A stretch of 64,000 nucleotides of DNA from positions 1,054,001 to 1,118,000 of the forward strand of contig JACGCN010000012.1 in NCBI GenBank assembly GCA_014905825.1. The letters are read 5' to 3'. Positions 27,506 to 37,701 of this stretch are shown here, one piece after another. The notes beneath the pieces were generated by a model, which saw only the letters and a list, made by a program, of their open reading frames with translations, was not told the origin of the DNA and made no database searches. Every line of letters starts with the position of its first letter. The stretch's first letter is position 1. A program made the position numbers and the translations under genes. The stretch comes from Lyophyllum atratum. Lineage: Eukaryota > Basidiomycota > Agaricomycetes > Agaricales > Lyophyllaceae.

Positions 27506-29023
27506 TCTAAATGAGACAATCTGCTGCTTTGACTTACAATGTCTGCAACAACTTGAAGCAAGACTGTCGAGAGGGGCACCAGTCGCACGGGAAGCACAGT
27601 ATAGGTAAGGGTCGATTCTGCTGCAAATGACAGTGGGTCCCCGCTAGTGAGGGACAATTACCAGCGGTGACGTGGCCCAGACGCAAATCCGCTGTGAATT
27701 CGGAAGGGTTGCTAATGCACAAAGGTAAAATTATGTCCGAGTGGAGGGACAGATCATGCACTTGAAGCAGGAAGGAAGATTCAGGACTTGATGCTATAAA
27801 GTACTGGTATTATCTTCGCTGTTGAGAATCCTTGAAGGATTTCTCGGTTTTGCTTGGAACTTCCTCGACTGCGTCTTGAACTGTTCACATCCGCGTGGAT
27901 TCCAGTTGAGGAGGAATTGGGATCCTTGGTGGTGACAAATGATATGGTGGAAGACTACTTGATTCGAGTCCTAAGTACAGTAGCGATTTGAGGTGCGAGA
28001 TAGAGTAGGAACAGAGAAAACAGAGATGAAGTTTTGACGACGCGTGGTACCGTTTATGGAAATTACCACGATTACGATCCTTGGTCTGGGCCCTCACCTA
28101 TTTGAGCCAGGTCTCAGAGACTCCTCCAAATAGGCGTGTATTGGGTTGGAGACCTTCGGCTAGCTACGCGGGGGTCTCCAGCAGGGTCTCCAGCGCAGTG
28201 TGGAGACCCAGAATACACTCTATGTACCAAGCTTACAGAAACCCCCGGATTTAGATCTCGGCCACGCCATGCTCGCAATGGCCCATACTCGCACGTCAAA
28301 TAGGCTTTGAATCCCTTTCCAATTTCTTAGCTCATGCCGGCCCCACGAACAAGTCTTCTTCCTTCACCGTACCTTGCTATCCTGCACGCTAGTGCTCCTT
28401 GTAATAAGAAGATTTTATATTCCTCTGCATTCGCACAAAAGTTCAAATACAGTGGTAAACCTCGGGAATCTTCCCGCCCTCTCCACATTATAAAAAACTA
28501 TAAACTTTGCGCCTCGAATGCACCCGTGCACGCCACCTCCTCCAGAAATTCCACTGCTACAAATGCAAATCTCACCTCCTTCCCCACGTCATGCTCTAGC
28601 CTCGAAGAGTTGGCACTGCGGGTGAACCTCTTTCAATAAATGTCTAGCTTCGCGCGACTAACAACTACTATAGCACGTCGTGTGTTCCGCAAATTCAATC
28701 CTTGCAGGAGGGGATGGCGCCAGGTAACTGCTTCGCTGGACATCCGCTTTCTAATCTTTCCAGGTTGGACGCGAAGCGTGCATGTGATGCGCAACGCGAC
28801 CTCAGCAGTTTCAGGGAGGGCCCGAGGGAGCTACTGTGTGCGACTGGGGGAGCTCGCTTTGCGATACCATTGCTTGAAAGATGAAGATCATACTTTGTTC
28901 TACGCCTACAGGTACACCAAGAATTCGTAAGGAAACGGGAAACGCGCGGCGGAACCACTTAGTCAACAGGGAGACTCGAAGAGAACCATTGCTGGCCTTC
29001 GTTGACCTATCACGTCGTCAGCA
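27506..29023. other. Repeat-rich intergenic stretch, no gene modelled
   Basis: Includes several GGAGACC / GGTCTCC words in both orientations at 28105-28210, capable of pairing (for example GGGTCTCC at 28181 with GGAGACCC at 28202). Open frames at 27534-27761 (minus) and 28334-28930 (plus) lack motifs. The former may be an upstream exon of the disrupted GCR1-like gene. Confidence 0.4.
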
Positions 29024-32000
29024 TCACAATTGCCAAAAGTCCGCCGCACAAACCTTGACACCATACGCCGGCTCATACCCGATTGTGCTAGCCAAAGATC
29101 CCACTTCGATGAACACATGTCCGTTCCTCCCTGTCCTAGTTAAAACGACAATGAGCACCAAAGAACAGATTTGTTGATTTCATTTGACGAACTGTGAACC
29201 CCAACTGTTTTGAACGATCCAGTACAGGCGAGGGATAGCGCCACAGGGATCGTCGGAGCGTGTGTAATGCGAGTATCCAACGACCGTCACTGAATAACGG
29301 TCAATTCCGTCTAAAGACCTCGCAAGAAAGCAGGGACGTACTGGCGTGATTGCCGTAGCCACACTTCCCCGGATAAAGAGCATCATAGAAAATTATCTCC
29401 ACAGGACTGTAACGAAGATCATCTACGTATTTTTTGAACCCGTCGTGCACAGTGAACTATTCCGTTCTCAGAGGCTGCTACTGGCGGTAAGGTAAAGCAA
29501 TACTCACCGACATGTAAACTGGTCCGACGTTCTAGTTTCAAGTAAGCTTCAGAAAGACACCTCCACACGAGCTCACCTTGATCCAGTCCTTGATGTCTTC
29601 TATGTCTGTGACACCCCCAAATGCAGCATAGGCGTTTATCAATACGAACGACTTGGTACTGGTTATGTAAGGAAGTTTGCCGTATTGGCTGGCAGCGCAT
29701 TGATTTTCCTGCAAGAAAGAATTCAAAAATGGACGCCTTGCAGTGCATATAATTTGACGTGCCTGGCACATAGGGACACCGGGAAAGACCCATGCATGGC
29801 ATGCAACCTTCCGTTGCAAAATAGCTGTTGCCTATCTTTCCATAGACATACTGAAAATCAGTGCCTGCCTATGATGTCAGACTCACCAGTGACCATGGAT
29901 AACTAATCAACACTCACCTAGGTCTGTTGACATTTCTGAGCGGCAGGCATGAACCCAAAGGGGAGAAAGATCCTTGGTAATGCCTACACGCATGTATGTC
30001 CTCTTGACAGTTGCCTGATCAAACATCAGAATAAAATATCGAATGAAGGGCAAAGCCACCATACTTCAACCAAGGTTGTTGTCGTGAAAGAAACGCACGC
30101 GGAACTCCCGCCCTGGTTCTTCACCGTCGTTCCGTACGTAAAACGTAGATCAACTGTATCAAGAGCACGTGGAGTCAGCTCGCGGTTTGCCAGACCAGTG
30201 ATGTTTCCGTTGCGTTGTTCGCGCCGTTCAAGCACCGACGATATCAGACTACGCCTTTGAGGAGGACCCGTGGGACAAGAGTCGGCTCGCTTTTGCGCGC
30301 CAGTCATATACTACACCCGCGAATGAGTACTCTGTGCAAACACTAGTGAAAACGCCCTCACCTTCTTGCTGTATGACCATGAGCGCCATTCTCCCCATAA
30401 CTGGTCATTTTGCATCTGTGCTAAAGGACGTGGCACATATCCTTTGGGGACAACGGGGCATATCGGATTCTCCGGTGACCCGACAGGCACTGAACGTAGC
30501 TTGATTAGAGATGTAAAGTTACTGGACGGCCATTACGCACGTCCAATTACTTTGAAGGATGCAGAACGTTCTTGTTGAACCCTGGTAGTCATGCTCTTCA
30601 ACACCTTACAAGTGAGAGTATCGTCGGTGGACGCGGGAGAGACACTGAAGCTGGTTGAAAACTTCAGCAAGCTAGAAAGACTGAAACATCGACACGTACC
30701 CGACGCAGCCAGTGAGGTTTGAACATTTGGATCGGCACGCCGCCACCCCGTTCTCTGTGGTAGTAGACTGACCATTATCTGAATAGTAGTATCCCTCTTC
30801 TGCCTAGAGGAAAATGACTAGGATGCATGCGAAAACGTTAGAGATACATACTGTGTACTTTAGTGCGTCACATGAACAGCCTTCGGTACTAATGCAAGTG
30901 TAAGTCGTTGCCAGAACGGCGAACCTACAACCCACTTTATCTTATAACCTAGATAGCAGGTTAGCTACCAAGTGAGATTGTCAAATTATGGGAGAAGTAC
31001 ACAGTGACGAGCACCCGAGGAATCCACAGGCTTTGGCGCCGTCCTTAAACAGCCCTCGACAGCTAGAGGAACATGTGAGAATCCAACATCCTTCTAATGT
31101 TTTGACTTACCTGTCATCGTAAACTTTCTCCCCTCCCTCAGAGCAATGGGATGACCAATGATTGCCTAAATTCCGTGAGCAGAATCACAAAACTTGAATA
31201 ATGTAGCGCACCTAGAGCGGCACAAGAGGAGGAGTAGTACATATACGCAGAGCACTTGGGCTCAGGCTTCCCGCCTTCGCGATCCCAGAAAGTGATGTCC
31301 AAGTAGTCCAGCAGTTCGCCTGCTTGTTGGCGACTCTTCTTTTCCATTTCTCCCATCATTGTTGCAAACGATGCGATGGCGAGAAGGCCTATAAGACCTA
31401 AGATGAGCAAAGGAATAATACCTAGGAAAGGACCGATTAGCTGCCGAAATGACTATTATACGTCTGTCCCTACGTTTCTGAGGATGACCAAGTTCCCGTT
31501 TTACTTGATTCCCAGTGATGGATGCCTCTGTGGTTGCTTGCTGGGCCTGTCCAACAGCGCTCATGTATTCATCCTCGCTGATTTTCCCGTCCCCTGATAT
31601 CAAGTAAAATTTGCTACAAGTTGAATCGGCAAAAACCGTACCATTTGTGTCGGATGAAGTCATGATGTGTTGAGCGAATTGTTCAGCATCGTTGATGCCC
31701 GTCACGCCGCGTGCGGAGGAGGGACTAACTGCAATCAAGGTGCGCAACTCATCGATGTCGAGTACCCCATCACCGTTGATATCGGCCTTTGAGAATGTAG
31801 ACTTGTGCGAAGAAGTATCTGCGAAAATATCGAGTCAGCGTTAATGATGGCAGGATACGAAAGAGCGAAACTACCGACGTTGAAATATAAGGTCTCCAGC
31901 GAATGTGTTTCGTGGATCATTTGAATTCAGATAAGCGGCGACCGGTGACTGAGGGATGTTATCACCTGGCGAGAATACGGGGTATGTGTCCCGTGGGGTA

Positions 32001-32930
32001 TAAGTCGGGGTAGAGTCGTCCGGGGCTATTTCATCCGGGGGTGCTACGCAAAGTGTTTGATCGGCCGCAAGGTCAGCACAAGAGAGTCCTGGATTCAGAG
32101 TGTCGAGTTGACCGCTTTGAAGAGAAAAATCCCCTTCGATCTTAGCACACCAGTCTCCGCTCTGAACCTAAGATTCGCGCCACGGTGATAAGTAACATAT
32201 GTCAGGACTGATTCCCGGTCCCTCACCTTGTAAATGTTCCCGCATGCCGGAAGAACGCAAGCAATGTCGCCGGCTTGCAGATTTTCGCACACAAGATTTC
32301 CATTCATCGACGTAAACTGTGATAGTTGAATTCCGTGTGCTACAGCAAGGCTGTAGCATGTATCGCCCTCCGTGATGGCTATTTTACCTTGGCACGCGAT
32401 GGTGGGATAAGGGTCGGCTGGAAGACTAATCGGGGGAGGTTCTGTCGAAGGGGGTGCAGGATCGGCGACAGGGGGTGCGATGCAAAGTCGTTGCCCAGCA
32501 AAGATCTCTCCACACGTAAATCCAGGGTTGAGCGACAACAAATCGGCCTCAGCGATGTTTTGCTCATCCTCGATCTTCGCACACCAGTCACCAGACGCAA
32601 CGACATACATTTTCGAGCACGGAAGAGCAAGGCAAAGACCCTGACCCACCGCCAGCGTGGCGCAGTCCAGCGAAGGGTTCAGTGCGGCGAGTTGCGCTTG
32701 AGTGATTCCTGCAGAGTCCGCGATCGCGAAGCAGCCATCTCCAGACACAACGGTATATAGTGTACCACAGTCTGACTGCAGCTTTGACACCTGCAGCGAA
32801 TGTGATGCGGCATGGACTGGGCAGAGATGTTAATCGGACGGATAGAATCAGAAGTTCGAAAATATGCACCAGTGAGCACCAGACCGCCGACGACCAAAAA
32901 ACGTTTCGCCAGTGTGACGACAAGAGCCAT
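29024..32930 (-). CDS. Multidomain LysM / EF-hand / hydrophobic segment / papain-like (C1) peptidase
   Basis: About 20 exons; most junctions keep frame, but those between 29917 and 29709 are unresolved. A signal peptide (MALVVTLAKRFLVVGG...) is followed by four LysM-like modules: YTVVSGDGCFAIADSAGIT, MYVVASGDWCAKIEDEQNI, IAITEGDTCYSLAVAHGI and YKVQSGDWCAKIEGD. Two EF-hands follow (DINGDGVLDIDE and DTNGDGKISEDE), then a hydrophobic segment (LIGPFLGIIPLLILGLIGLL). A Cys-rich part comes next (STEGCSCDALKY, GVAACRSKCSNLTGCVGF). The C-terminus is a papain-family domain with VKNQGGSSACVSF (Gln and Cys), CGYGNHAMTVVGYS (His) and YWIVQNSWGS (Asn), so all catalytic residues are present. LysM binds chitin or related glycans and C1 enzymes cut proteins. 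It is divergently arranged with the chitinase gene at 34763. Total about 960 residues. Topology is puzzling because Cys-rich regions lie on both sides of the hydrophobic segment. Confidence 0.82.
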
Positions 32931-34762
32931 ATGAGTTTGTGGACAATTATTCGATAGGAAGCCGGAGTCCGAACTGGAGTCGCTGTCATTTTATGATTTA
33001 TCGGGAGGCACCAAAAACATCCACCAACTTGTAATTCCCAACTTAGGCTTCTGACCAGTGCTTTCATCGTAGGGCAAGGGGACTTCGTTTCTCCGACGGA
33101 ACAGTCACCAATCTAGGGCAGAGGTTCTTCTTCCAGGCGAATCTGTTGTGCATGCGTAAGTTAACATGGGCATCACTGGCAAACGGCTCGAATGGGACCA
33201 GTACCTCCGACACGTAGGTACCTGACGCATGCTATGATACATAGAAGTTCTTCAACATCAGAATGGCCTCCCGACGATCGCCGTGAGTTGTGCTGGGCAA
33301 CCTGCTTCGAGGGAGTCTTGGCTACATCGCGAACTGGCCTGACCAATTGTTAGCCTTTGGCTAGCCCTTCAAATTGCTGCCTTTGTCGCCAACTTCTTCT
33401 CAGGCCGAATGTTGTTTGTTCAAACTGCTGATACGGATAGGATGAAACAAATTACAACATCATGTGGCACGGCAGGCACAGCAGGCACAGCGCACATGTT
33501 CCTATTTTTAGAGTTCCGTAGATCGCCGACGCTTCGCCAAGGTCAACCAGAGCCAATGCGCACCTATGCGCACAGCTCAGCGTTCAACTGGGTGACTTCC
33601 CGTAAGGATCTAGAGTGATCTAGGAATTCTAAACTCGTAACGAAGGGTCGTCGAAAAAATCTGGAGGATGGGTCGTCAAACCGTAAGACACAAAACTTCA
33701 GATCTAGAAAGCTGTGGCTCAACCATTTGGACTGAAATTTAAGATCCGCCATACGGGGGATCGGGGAAACGGTCAATATTCGAGTGATAGACGAAGGTAA
33801 GCGATGATAAGCGAGTTCTGCAGGATGTTTTTGAGGCTGCAGAGGGGTCGGGATACCTCTGTAGATTCAAATGACTAAAATTAGCTCCTTGACGACGATG
33901 AAGTCTGGAGAGCCCAACTTTCGACTTTCGCCATCATATTCGACCTATTTGGGCCCCGGCATCCCGGCTGATGGGCATTTCTACGATTTCTACATTCTAA
34001 ATCGTTTCCAGATCCTTACGGGAAGTCACCCACTGTCTTCCAACCTCCAAACATGTGGTAAGCGCTACTTCCAATTTGGCCCTCTCCCACAACCTCCGAG
34101 GTCAACCGAGCTCTTGGCTGCTCTCAACCGCCTCCTGCTCCGCCGATCGGCAAAACATAATCTTCTTTGTGACCTTTGAGCGGTCTTCAAGGTCAACTAT
34201 CCAAGAATCTGCAAAATGAATGGTATTTGAACTCGTTACTTCGTGAGTCACTCAATCCGTGTAACAGCTTTTGGGAAGTGACGGATCTACTTTCAAGTCA
34301 TCGCCAACTCATCACTTCTACGCCTTTTCCCATCTGTTAGGGCAGATTTCGTTTCGCGACGGATTCATCACCGGTCTATGATGAAAGTTCTTTGCGCCTA
34401 ATTCTATGACTTGTGTTACAATGGCCATGCCCCATCATCATCCGAAGATACTTAGCTTCACCAGGGTCAACTTCAACACCAACCCAGACAGGCCGCTCTA
34501 GATCCAGGTTCAGGTTCTTCATCATAAATGGCACCTGAGACTCCCGACGACCTCCGTGAAGTGTATTGCAGTGTATTGCATGGCACCGTGCCTTCTGGAT
34601 GGTCTTGGCCGTCTCCTGACCCTGCATGACCATGTGCTTCCGTTCCTCGTAGTGTTCAACCACCGATGCATACCGCTGGTACCGATACGGCGAAAGAGCA
34701 ATACATTTATACAATGCGACAGTCCAGGATTTGCAGCCCAACCCCACCAAGAAAGTGCGTAG
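32931..34762. promoter_or_regulatory. Shared intergenic region of the divergent LysM genes
   Basis: 1.8 kb between two start codons on opposite strands, containing both promoters. A short GGCACA tandem (GCACGGCAGGCACAGCAGGC) occurs near 33467-33490. No gene or clear TATA box could be assigned. Confidence 0.5.
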
Positions 34763-37701
34763 ATGAAGCCCTGTCTTCTGCTTTCTGCCTTCGCGGGGAT
34801 CCCCCTGCTGGCCATTGCGTCGAATCACATCCAGTTTTCGCACTATGGCAAGCGAGCAGATTGCAGATATATATCTGTCGCTTCTGGGGATGGATGTGCA
34901 AGTCTTGCGACTAAATGCGGCATCACAGCAGCGGAGTTCACGTCCTTCAACCCGCAATTGTCTTGCTCGACTCTACAGGTGGACCAGGTAATTGAATCAA
35001 ATACTCATTCCAACTCTATACTCATAAACCTGTAGTGGGTCTGCTGCAGTTCGGGAACGCTGCCATCCAAGTGATTCACGCCGCACAACGGTGCCATTCT
35101 TCATAGGCAGCAATCACTAATTTTCTGCCAACAGGCGCCCTTCGCCGAACCCCGACGGCTCATGCTTCGCCGTGGACGTCGTCGACGGCTCCGATTGTTC
35201 TCAATTTTCCGTCAAATATGATGTCTCGCTGACCGAAATCGATACTTGGAACCAGCAGACCTGGCGGTATGTCGTGACCTCTGCACCTTTTCCTGCACTC
35301 CTTAGGCATCACGCAGATGGACTGGCTGTTCTGGTCTCCAACCTGGCATGAAGATTTGCATGTCGGCGGGTACATCCCCCCTTCCTGCACAGAACAGCAG
35401 TGAGATGCATGATTCGTCCTAAAACTGAACATATACTGATGTGGTATGCCCCCTCAAAGCGATTCCGTGTGGACTTGAGAGTGTGGGCAACAAAGAATGC
35501 CCGCTCAGAGCGTGCTGTGGGAAGTAAGCTCAACAATAATTCCGTGGAAATCTTGGAAGATTCATGCTCACGGATGCGTTCAATAGATGGGGCTACTGCG
35601 GTCTGACGTCAGGGAATTCAGATATCTCACGGTTTTAGATTTGCTGAGACGTTTACTAGTGACGACTTCTGCGAGACCAGCAATGGCGCACCCGGAACTG
35701 GCTGCCAATCTCACTGCGAGAAGATTAGCGAATTCGATAACGTTGGACTTAGCACTGGTAAGTGTTTTTCTGCAAAGTACGAGGTCGGGAGACCTAATGC
35801 GCCCGAATTCAGCCAATCCCGGTCGCAACATCATCGGGTACTACAGCAACTGTACGCGTCTACCTCTAATCATGACCCATTCTTTCCCCATTGTTTACAT
35901 GTATAGTTTAGGGTCTGCCCACCGTTCTTGCAGTGGTGTTCCCAATACCGTCCTTCCCGCCGTGCGACCGAGCGAATTAGATGCGAACTCGTTCACACAC
36001 ATCGTCTATTCATTTGCATCAGTTTCGCGCGGAGACTTCAGGCTGATAGAAACGCAGGACGATGACAAAGACCTTATTGCTGAGCTCCAGGCGCTGAAAC
36101 AGATCAATCCCAACCTTAAAACGATGTGGGCCGTCGGTGGTTGGGCTTTCAATGTAAGCTTTATTCGTCCTGTATTTTAGTCTCGCAGTAGGCTGAGGCT
36201 TTACTAGGATCCTCCCACCCAAGATATATTTTCTTTGGCGGTTCGCACGTCCTCCAGCCGAACAACATTCGTCAACAATATCATCAGCGGGTTGGCTTCC
36301 TACGGTTTCGACGGTATCGACATTGTACGTACGTTCTTTATGGATCACGACGCTTGAACATGACTGGACTCTTACGCAGGACTGGGGTACGTCCTTCGTG
36401 TTCTGCCCTTGACTACATGCACTGATGACGGTTGCCACAGAATATCCGGGAACCGAACGGGGTGGCATCGAGGCTGACGGCCAAAACTTCCTTGCTTTGT
36501 TACAGGAACTCTACGCCGCGACTTCAAGTAGAGGTCTTCAGATCAGTTTTACCGTACCTGCGTCTTTCTGGTGCGCTTAAACTTGACTGCACTGAATACA
36601 TACTCACATCACCGCTTTAGGTACTTGCAACAGTTCCCAATAGTCGAAATGCAAGATTATACGAACTGGATTAACGTGATGACATACGTGAGCATCATAA
36701 GACTATATAAAAATCGTGCCGCGCTAAAATACCACTTAGGACATTCACGGAAGGTTTGCAGGCCATAACTTACAGACTTGTCCATTTTTTGACCTTATGC
36801 GCAGCTGGGACATCAAATTCGGCACCGGCGTGCTTCCTCACACCGCCATCCCAGAAATCAACGCAGCAGTAAACATGCTTCTCAAAGCCGGTGTCAACAT
36901 CGGCAAAATCAACCTTGGCATCGGCTTTTATGGTCGCTCCTTCACCCTCTCCGATCCTGGCTGTAAAGTCGCTGGATGCCCCTTCACTGGAGGCGGGACC
37001 GTGGGGCCATGTACAGGTAAGTCTGCCATGATAGCCTCCGCAAACATTTGCCAATGGTGCGCTAGGCGGAGAAGGGTTCCTATCGTACGGAGAGATAGAC
37101 TATCTCATTCAATCTAAAGGCCTTAAACCGACATACAACTCTACCAGCAAGACTATGACTTTGGGTGAGTTTCCACGTTATGTTCCATGACTCAAGAGGC
37201 TGATCAGATGGGGTTTCCAGTCTACGACGACCAGTGGATTGGGTATGTATCGTATTATCATTATGCAAGATATTATGGTGCTAACCAATTTCGGAGCGTA
37301 GGTACGAGGACGCTTCAACATTGGCCACAAAACTGGAGTACGTTCTGAAGCGTACGATGCCCGGCGTCCTCATCTGGGCTGTCGATCTGGATAAAAACAA
37401 TCAATTATTAAGCGCGGCAAGTACAAATCGTAGTGATGATACTGAGCACGTCTTATAATAACGTCATCTACAGGTCGTCGGTCACTCCCTGATTCCCGTG
37501 AAATCCGCAACGGATTGCCCCGCTGATGGCATATGGAAGACGACAAGAGCCGGCCAGACAGCGAACGTGCCGTGCTTCTCCTCCAGCGATAATCCACATC
37601 GCAGTCGGCGGTGTATTGGGCCAAATTGGGCAGATGAAGGACAGTCGTTCTGTGGAGCGAGCCAGATGATGCTGGCTGCATTTGGTCACTGTGGGTTGTA
37701 G
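34763..37701 (+). CDS. LysM-CBM18-GH18 chitinase (killer-toxin alpha/beta-like subgroup)
   Basis: Nineteen exons give 649 residues in frame with all phases consistent. A signal peptide (MKPCLLLSAFAGIPLLAIA) is followed by LysM 1 (YISVASGDGCASLATKCGIT), then WVCCSSGTLP and LysM 2 (CFAVDVVDGSDCSQFSVKYD, TWRWTGCSGLQPGMKIC). A type-1 chitin-binding domain comes next (CPLRACCGKWGYCGLTDDFC), then GH18: NIIGYYSNWSAH, MWAVGGWAFN, the catalytic motif DGIDIDWEYPG with intact Glu, and GIGFYGRSF. The tail is Cys-rich. The order matches fungal subgroup C chitinases related to yeast killer-toxin alpha/beta subunits, which degrade chitin outside the cell. The catalytic motif is split by a 7-nt exon (36380-36386). 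The last intron (37417-37473) begins GCAAGT and ends CAG. The neighbour LysM gene is divergent. Confidence 0.92.

What the first reader, a model, noticed from the sequence alone, without database searches (positions are those of the whole stretch)
29024..37701. Divergent LysM pair: LysM/EF-hand/papain protein beside a LysM/CBM18/GH18 killer-toxin-like chitinase
Seen: two large secreted multidomain genes share one 1.8-kb intergenic region and both carry N-terminal LysM modules. Known: in several ascomycetes, subgroup C chitinases sit next to LysM-protein genes, an arrangement compared with the chitin-binding alpha/beta part of yeast killer toxins. Inferred: here the partner carries a papain-type protease, suggesting a two-component chitin-docking system with one enzyme for polysaccharide and one for protein, for attack on or defence against other fungi, or self-wall remodelling. 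I do not know this combination from basidiomycetes.
Basis: partly seen in the sequence, partly recalled or inferred. Interest (0 to 1): 0.85.

Follow-up and report, generated by a model that had tools for sequence, protein, structure and literature searches.

The report
Mushroom chitinase paired with LysM protease
In a mushroom genome, a chitin-cutting enzyme gene sits back to back with a gene for a chitin-binding protein that carries a papain-type protease, and the pair has been duplicated together and seems to recur in other mushrooms, which suggests the two proteins act together on fungal cell walls.

Summary
The minus gene runs 32930→28959 (22 exons, 963 aa): four LysM, EF-hand pair, hydrophobic helix, Cys-rich part, C1A papain domain with Gln-Cys-His-Asn intact. 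The plus gene (34763–37701, 19 exons, 649 aa) is LysM–CBM18–GH18 with its catalytic motif intact. The genome matches Lyophyllum atratum. A second, mirrored copy of the pair lies about 86 kb away; both pairs are on both haplotypes, under constraint. Tags and contig lengths suggest linkage in Pleurotus djamor, Crepidotus, two Mycena species and an unnamed contig; not in L. shimeji. Precedent: Trichoderma tal6/tac6; the papain fusion is the difference. New here: dibasic sites before the helix (14 of 17 homologs) and at the protease's mature N-terminus (10 of 16; not in L. atratum, which has PR), so the protease may be cut loose from its LysM anchor; a diverged direct repeat behind both genes; a faster-evolving papain part; a 444-bp transposon-like insert in this haplotype's promoter. 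Against: public annotation splits the protease gene, the window allele may be frameshifted, and function is inferred only.

The parts
28959..32930 (-). LysM/EF-hand/papain gene, 22 exons, 963 aa
   Evidence: spliced model without internal stops; Pfam; allele and paralog models in frame
32050..32769 (-). four LysM modules (outer limits approximate)
   Evidence: PF01476, 4 stretches, E 5.6e-37; coordinates
31600..31800 (-). EF-hand pair (limits approximate)
   Evidence: PF13499 E 2.3e-9 at residues 319-385
31366..31475 (-). dibasic KR followed by hydrophobic helix IIPLLILGLIGLLAIASFA
   Evidence: dibasic in 14 of 17 homolog rows with that column; mean hydropathy 2.65 over 19 residues in the window protein
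30541..31254 (-). conserved Cys-rich part with micro-exon 30936-30948; no Pfam family over its cut-off
   Evidence: PAN_4 at E 0.08 in one of four homologous pieces scanned
28959..30169 (-). C1A papain domain; Cys about 30095, His about 29346, Asn about 29207
   Evidence: PF00112 E 1e-14; PDB cathepsins by sequence; Gln/Cys/His/Asn the same in every row with a residue there
32931..34762 (.). shared intergenic region
32941..33495 (.). papain-side copy of a diverged direct repeat
   Evidence: score 73.4 against a maximum of 46.4 in 200 dinucleotide shuffles
34191..34747 (.). chitinase-side copy of the same direct repeat
   Evidence: also found in the allele L009 and in pair 2 (L010)
33589..34032 (.). 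444-bp inverted-repeat element (26-bp arms; ACTG reads as target duplication), absent from the other haplotype
34763..37701 (+). LysM-CBM18-GH18 chitinase gene, 19 exons, 649 aa, intron 18 GC-AG
35468..35690 (+). CBM18 (limits approximate)
   Evidence: PF00187 E 2.1e-8
35825..37400 (+). GH18 catalytic domain with DGIDIDWE starting at 36310 (limits approximate)
   Evidence: PF00704 E 2.3e-66

Best explanation
A conserved Agaricomycete two-gene module that acts on chitin-containing (fungal) cell walls. The plus gene makes a secreted GH18 chitinase that binds its substrate through LysM and CBM18. The minus gene makes a secretory precursor with four LysM and an EF-hand pair in front, a hydrophobic helix and a Cys-rich part in the middle, and a cathepsin-like C1A protease at the end. 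Most likely the precursor is cut at basic sites in the secretory pathway, giving a chitin-binding LysM/EF part and a freed or disulphide-held papain enzyme; the chitinase opens chitin while the protease degrades wall or enemy proteins, in confrontation with other fungi or in recycling dead mycelium. Shown by sequence: gene models, domains, catalytic residues, duplication as a unit, constraint, faster papain evolution. Indicated by tags and contig lengths: linkage in other species. Inferred: secretion, cleavage, co-expression, target and role.
For: Domains and catalytic residues. Pair duplicated as a unit, both copies on both haplotypes, under constraint. Linkage: consecutive tags ONZ45_g15347/15348/15349 in Pleurotus djamor; equal contig lengths for papain-type or LysM/EF hit and chitinase hit at 5,570 bp (unnamed source), 284,129 (Crepidotus variabilis), 254,483 (Mycena vitilis), 1,195,854 (Mycena vulgaris). 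10 of the 21 family proteins found carry LysM and Peptidase_C1 in the precomputed Pfam column. 4 of the 5 Peptidase_C1 matches in the genome (E up to 1, none over the cut-off, exon by exon) are these two genes on two haplotypes; an ORF next to the fifth matches Peptidase_C1_2. Basic site at the mature papain N-terminus. Direct repeat behind both genes. Precedent: tal6 beside and co-regulated with tac6 in Trichoderma (PMC4392113, passages); in the Podospora non-self reaction more GH18, CBM18 and LysM genes go up than down (PMC3689799, passages).
Against: No expression or activity data. Public L. atratum proteins hold the LysM part (P0082, 330 aa) and, for pair 2, the papain part (P0079, 435 aa) separately. 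The window allele may be frameshifted in exon 16. L. shimeji homologs lie on contigs of different length; no shared length was visible for Rhizoctonia, Ceratobasidium or Mycena polygramma. 6 of 16 homologs lack a dibasic at the mature N-terminus, and L. atratum is among those without; 8 of the 10 with one are Rhizoctonia/Ceratobasidium proteins; dibasics are also common elsewhere, e.g. 9 of 17 rows a few residues inside the mature domain. Internal helix plus signal peptide could instead make a membrane protein. Faster papain evolution also fits relaxed constraint.
Confidence: 0.6

Rival explanations
1. Own-wall remodelling or recycling: the pair serves autolysis, fruiting or nitrogen recovery from the fungus's own mycelium, with no antagonistic role.
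For: Fungi use chitinases on their own walls (PMC4392113, passages); both genes are under purifying selection.
Against: The papain part evolves faster than the rest of its protein (dN/dS 0.46 against 0.18 with L015, 0 of 1000 permutations; 0.39 against 0.18 with L016, 2 of 1000), which fits conflict but equally relaxed constraint.
Confidence: 0.22
2. Two separate genes, a LysM/EF-hand gene and a papain gene, joined only in my model, or one locus with a short LysM-only splice form.
For: Public proteins of L. atratum and Crepidotus are short and separate. P0082 ends just after intron 3, which fits a donor 4 bp beyond mine.
Against: Frame open from LysM to papain in the three other copies, and in the window allele with a shifted donor. 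Single annotated proteins with both parts in Pleurotus (957 aa), L. shimeji (901), Mycena polygramma (868) and Rhizoctonia (up to 962). P0002 is 963 aa on a 3,095-bp contig, which leaves no room for 21 introns, so it looks like cDNA.
Confidence: 0.1
3. Killer-toxin-like delivery: LysM parts and chitinase breach the wall, the hydrophobic helix enters the target membrane and the papain part is a payload.
For: Hydrophobic helix with a dibasic before it (14 of 17) and a basic cut site at the payload's start (10 of 16); fast payload evolution.
Against: No entry or toxicity data; two homologs with that region, P0010 and P0077, lack the helix; a Cys-rich payload suggests an extracellular enzyme.
Confidence: 0.12

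Closest known systems
Trichoderma tal6/tac6 (LysM-protein gene beside subgroup C chitinase gene)
   Same: a LysM-protein gene next to, and co-regulated with, a LysM/CBM18/GH18-type chitinase gene (PMC4392113, passages)
   Different: Tal6 has seven LysM and is treated as a LysM effector, i.e. without catalytic domain; here the partner adds EF-hands, a hydrophobic helix and a papain protease, and the chitinase is 649 aa, far below the 150-250 kDa given there for subgroup C
Kluyveromyces lactis killer toxin alpha/beta part
   Same: its alpha subunit is likened to the architecture of subgroup C chitinases (PMC4392113, passage); dibasic cleavage between parts is recalled, from no call
   Different: a gamma subunit was not searched for; the candidate payload here is a protease on the neighbouring gene
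C1A papain-like proteases (cathepsins L, K, H, C)
   Same: Gln-Cys-His-Asn, start of the mature domain, profile match to procathepsin L at 2.4e-19
   Different: no inhibitor prodomain family reported in the scans; LysM/EF/Cys-rich front end; active-site Cys not followed by Trp
Rhizoctonia solani 'killer toxin alpha/beta' protein P0030
   Same: in the same 15-row clade as the window chitinase; LysM and GH18
   Different: name is the depositor's; no CBM18 found in it; linkage to a LysM-papain gene not visible

Membership tests
subgroup C (killer-toxin-like) fungal chitinases | LysM and CBM18 modules in front of GH18 | tested here: met
   a second LysM-like stretch is below the cut-off (14.1 bits)
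subgroup C (killer-toxin-like) fungal chitinases | GH18 domain placed in clade C by phylogeny | tested here: inconclusive
   tree of 36 of the 60 hits plus the window: own 15-row clade of Agaricales and Cantharellales (99/99), next to two chytrid rows, apart from the ascomycete LysM/CBM18 row P0053 and LysM row P0039; four other Agaricomycete rows (P0037, P0046, P0052, P0060) fall elsewhere; backbone 46/85; no clade A/B references
subgroup C (killer-toxin-like) fungal chitinases | large size, 150-250 kDa | tested here: not met
   649 aa; size from PMC4392113 passage
subgroup C (killer-toxin-like) fungal chitinases | active-site DxxDxDxE | tested here: met
   FDGIDIDWE in the window protein
LysM effectors | several LysM and no catalytic domain | tested here: not met
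   papain domain in the gene model; the front half alone would fit if cleaved or if P0082 is a real product
C1A papain family | Gln, Cys, His, Asn of the active site | tested here: met
   16/16, 16/16, 15/15, 13/13 rows with a residue there, of 19 rows; window protein read by eye
C1A papain family | papain fold | tested here: inconclusive
zymocin-type killer toxin | separate gamma subunit | not tested
   no search for it was made

The most novel reading that the evidence does not exclude
A mushroom killer system in which a chitinase and a LysM/EF-hand docking module open and hold the wall of another fungus, and Kex2-type cleavage frees a papain protease, preceded by a membrane-entering helix, as the toxic payload: a protease-armed counterpart of yeast killer toxins, spread through Agaricomycetes.
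Probability: 0.13. Interest if true: 0.9.

Novelty: new variant of a known kind. Interest (0 to 1): 0.6.

Why it matters
How mushrooms fight or digest other fungi is little known at the protein level. If right, this adds a protease arm to the known LysM/chitinase gene pairs, gives a small two-gene system that can be tested in cultivable Agaricomycetes such as Pleurotus, and asks whether LysM modules anchor a protease or are shed from it. It also shows that the public L. atratum models of both genes look truncated.

Tried and rejected
Tried without use: full-length structure prediction of P0002 (mean pLDDT 47); PAN/Apple reading of the Cys-rich part (E 0.08 in one of four pieces); NCBIfam scan (LysM- and EF-type hits below cut-offs, a GH18 hit below cut-off). 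Literature: searches and, for the species, 30. In their listings (titles, starts of abstracts) I saw no report of a fungal LysM-papain protein beside a chitinase; (killer toxin and Kex2) found no paper. Passages only were seen of PMC4392113, PMC8042737, PMC6773873, PMC8510539, PMC3689799, PMC13220806 and PMC6690862; no paper was read whole, and most subscription journals are not held. The two searches for the papain partner are word-based and scored capped candidate lists, so finding named hits only in Agaricomycetes does not show absence elsewhere.

Rejected: chance neighbourhood (unit duplication); an inverted promoter repeat (inverted scores below the shuffle maxima); the Peptidase_C1 match at C108 as a third C1A gene. 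The intergenic alignment is spoiled, because the start of the L012 gene was not found; only the window and L009 lengths were taken from it. The first minus-gene model lacked the micro-exon; the protein scans and searches, and the dN/dS, rest on that version. The allelic count (25 of 28) was inflated by 9 codons that my window model reads out of frame; one search gives 17.5 of 20.5 without them.
Full report
What is there. The window is C24:1054001-1118000 of a 64.8-Mb assembly in 151 contigs; C81 carries an allelic copy of the locus. The window chitinase matches a Lyophyllum atratum protein at 100% over 88% of its length, and that protein's contig has the length of C24, 1,602,564 bp, so the genome is taken to be that species.

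Gene models. Both genes were spliced by hand and checked on an allele (L009) and paralogous copies (L010, L012 for the chitinase; L015, L016 for the papain gene). The minus gene has 22 exons, 32930 to 28959, 963 aa, no internal stop. An earlier 958-aa version lacked a 13-bp micro-exon, which the stretch CYKIN of P0079 and P0002 revealed. The plus gene has 19 exons, 34763 to 37701, 649 aa; three further copies read through with the same exons. Its intron 18 is GC-AG: the Crepidotus homolog P0018 (650 aa) continues across that point as modelled, the public L. atratum proteins P0017 and P0019 stop there. In L009, L015 and L016 exon 16 of the minus gene ends before a GC donor; the public protein P0079 (pair 2) is spliced that way. 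The window allele has a 4-bp insertion there and needs a GT 7 bp upstream to stay in frame. Whether it is intact is open.

Domains. Minus protein: LysM (four stretches, E 5.6e-37), EF-hand pair (2.3e-9), Peptidase_C1 (1e-14). Plus protein: GH18 (2.3e-66), CBM18 (2.1e-8), LysM (3.6e-8); a second LysM-like stretch is below threshold. The papain part matches cathepsins of the PDB by sequence (best single-sequence hit dipeptidyl peptidase I, 2e-10; profile to procathepsin L, 2.4e-19). In 19 of the 21 family proteins aligned (P0080 and P0082 left out), active-site Gln, Cys, His and Asn are the same in every row with a residue there (16, 16, 15, 13 rows). A model of P0081 is weak (mean pLDDT 50); the matches listed for it are C1A proteases or papain-fold proteins.

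More than chance. A second divergent pair lies at about C24:988.7-996.7 kb, mirrored, some 86 kb from the first, and both have alleles on C81. The duplicated stretch is about the pair itself: 81-82% DNA identity from about 28.9 (28.65 with L016) to 37.7 kb, with an unaligned middle of the intergenic region. dN/dS between duplicates is 0.23-0.26 for the papain gene and about 0.16 for the chitinase. 20 of 28 LysM matches in the genome lie in the two pairs. A further LysM/GH18 locus on C100 has no Peptidase_C1 match or further LysM match on its contig.

Relatives. Two searches for the minus gene (residues 395-958; profile A1) gave 15 proteins each, 21 different ones; all that bear a name are from Agaricomycetes: Pleurotus, Mycena, Crepidotus, Lyophyllum, Rhizoctonia, Ceratobasidium. 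Ten of 21 carry LysM and Peptidase_C1 in one protein by the precomputed Pfam column. The chitinase search listed 60 at E up to 1e-90. Linkage, read from tags and contig lengths: P. djamor g15347 (papain), g15348 (chitinase), g15349 (LysM/EF, no papain); 5,570 bp for P0010 and P0032; Crepidotus variabilis 284,129; Mycena vitilis 254,483; Mycena vulgaris 1,195,854. Equal contig length is a fingerprint, not proof of adjacency. Against: L. shimeji 191,861 versus 1,566,531; no shared length seen for Mycena polygramma, Rhizoctonia or Ceratobasidium, where the tables show one contig per cluster only.

One gene or two. Public L. atratum proteins split it: P0082 (LysM, 330 aa, this locus) and P0079 (papain part, 435 aa, pair 2). 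P0082 ends just after intron 3, which fits a donor 4 bp beyond mine; it could be a real short form. Long single proteins in other species, the open frame in the other copies and P0002 (963 aa on a 3,095-bp contig) speak for one gene. A transcript would settle it.

Processing. KR or RR stands right before the hydrophobic helix in 14 of 17 rows with that column, and at or next to the start of the mature papain domain in 10 of 16 (8 at column 804, P0003 and P0077 one column on); the 8 are Rhizoctonia/Ceratobasidium proteins and so not independent. Other columns also hold dibasics (767: 4 of 4; 800: 5 of 16; 813, inside the mature domain: 9 of 17; 1058: 4 of 14), so the two sites are not unique. 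By the match ranges, the residue after RR in P0003 falls on residue 1 of cathepsin K chain 1atk_A. The window protein has KR at the first site and PR at the second. Cutting by a Kex2-type protease is inferred. If it happens, LysM modules would not anchor the protease unless disulphides hold the parts together.

Tempo. L009 against L015: papain part dN/dS 0.46 (0.29-0.70), rest 0.18 (0.13-0.23), 0 of 1000 permutations reach the difference; against L016 0.39 and 0.18, 2 of 1000. Between the two alleles of this pair, leaving out 9 codons that my window model reads out of frame, 17.5 of 20.5 amino-acid-changing and 15.5 of 30.5 silent differences lie in the papain part, so both kinds are raised there. 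Allelic identity falls to 88.7% in one block (29327-29520) against 97.4-100% in the other 21. An arms race or relaxed constraint would both fit.

Promoter. The two sides of the intergenic region share a diverged direct repeat: score 73.4 against a maximum of 46.4 in 200 shuffles and 40.4 in 59 random window pairs; allele 66.2 against 49.8; pair 2 89.4 against 55.6; inverted orientation below the shuffle maxima in all three. Being in both pairs, it probably predates their duplication. Relative to each gene's direction the copies point opposite ways. Shared regulation is possible, not shown. The 444-bp element at 33589-34032 has 26-bp inverted arms and four full-length matches at 98-100% in the genome, itself included, among 18 matches.

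Placing it. The kind is known: LysM-protein genes beside subgroup C chitinase genes, tal6/tac6, co-regulated (PMC4392113, passages). Clade C-I chitinases occur in six orders of Agaricomycetes (PMC8042737, passages). In a tree of 36 of the 60 hits plus the window, chosen by me, the window chitinase belongs to a separate Agaricales/Cantharellales clade of 15 rows (99/99), not among the ascomycete rows, while four other Agaricomycete rows fall elsewhere (weak backbone). The papain fusion, EF-hands, helix and basic sites are the new part; the searches named in Tried and rejected listed no report of it.

Noticed in passing
window 33589-34032: 444-bp inverted-repeat (MITE-like) element inserted in the shared promoter of this haplotype only; three other full-length near-identical matches in the genome.
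   Followed up: yes
window 29327-29520: Allelic divergence peaks (88.7% identity) in the papain domain just before the catalytic His; the other 21 blocks are at 97.4-100%.
   Followed up: partly
window about 29770-29800: 4-bp insertion in exon 16 of the window allele, absent from three other copies; splice shift or frameshift.
   Followed up: partly
window 37417-37473: GC-AG intron at which the public chitinase proteins P0017 and P0019 end.
   Followed up: yes
L014 (C100:112500-122499): Another LysM/GH18 locus with no LysM-papain neighbour among the matches.
   Followed up: partly
Pleurotus djamor ONZ45_g15347-g15349: By tag order a chitinase gene lies between two LysM/EF genes, one of them (602 aa) ending before the papain part; true loss or annotation error unknown.
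   Followed up: no
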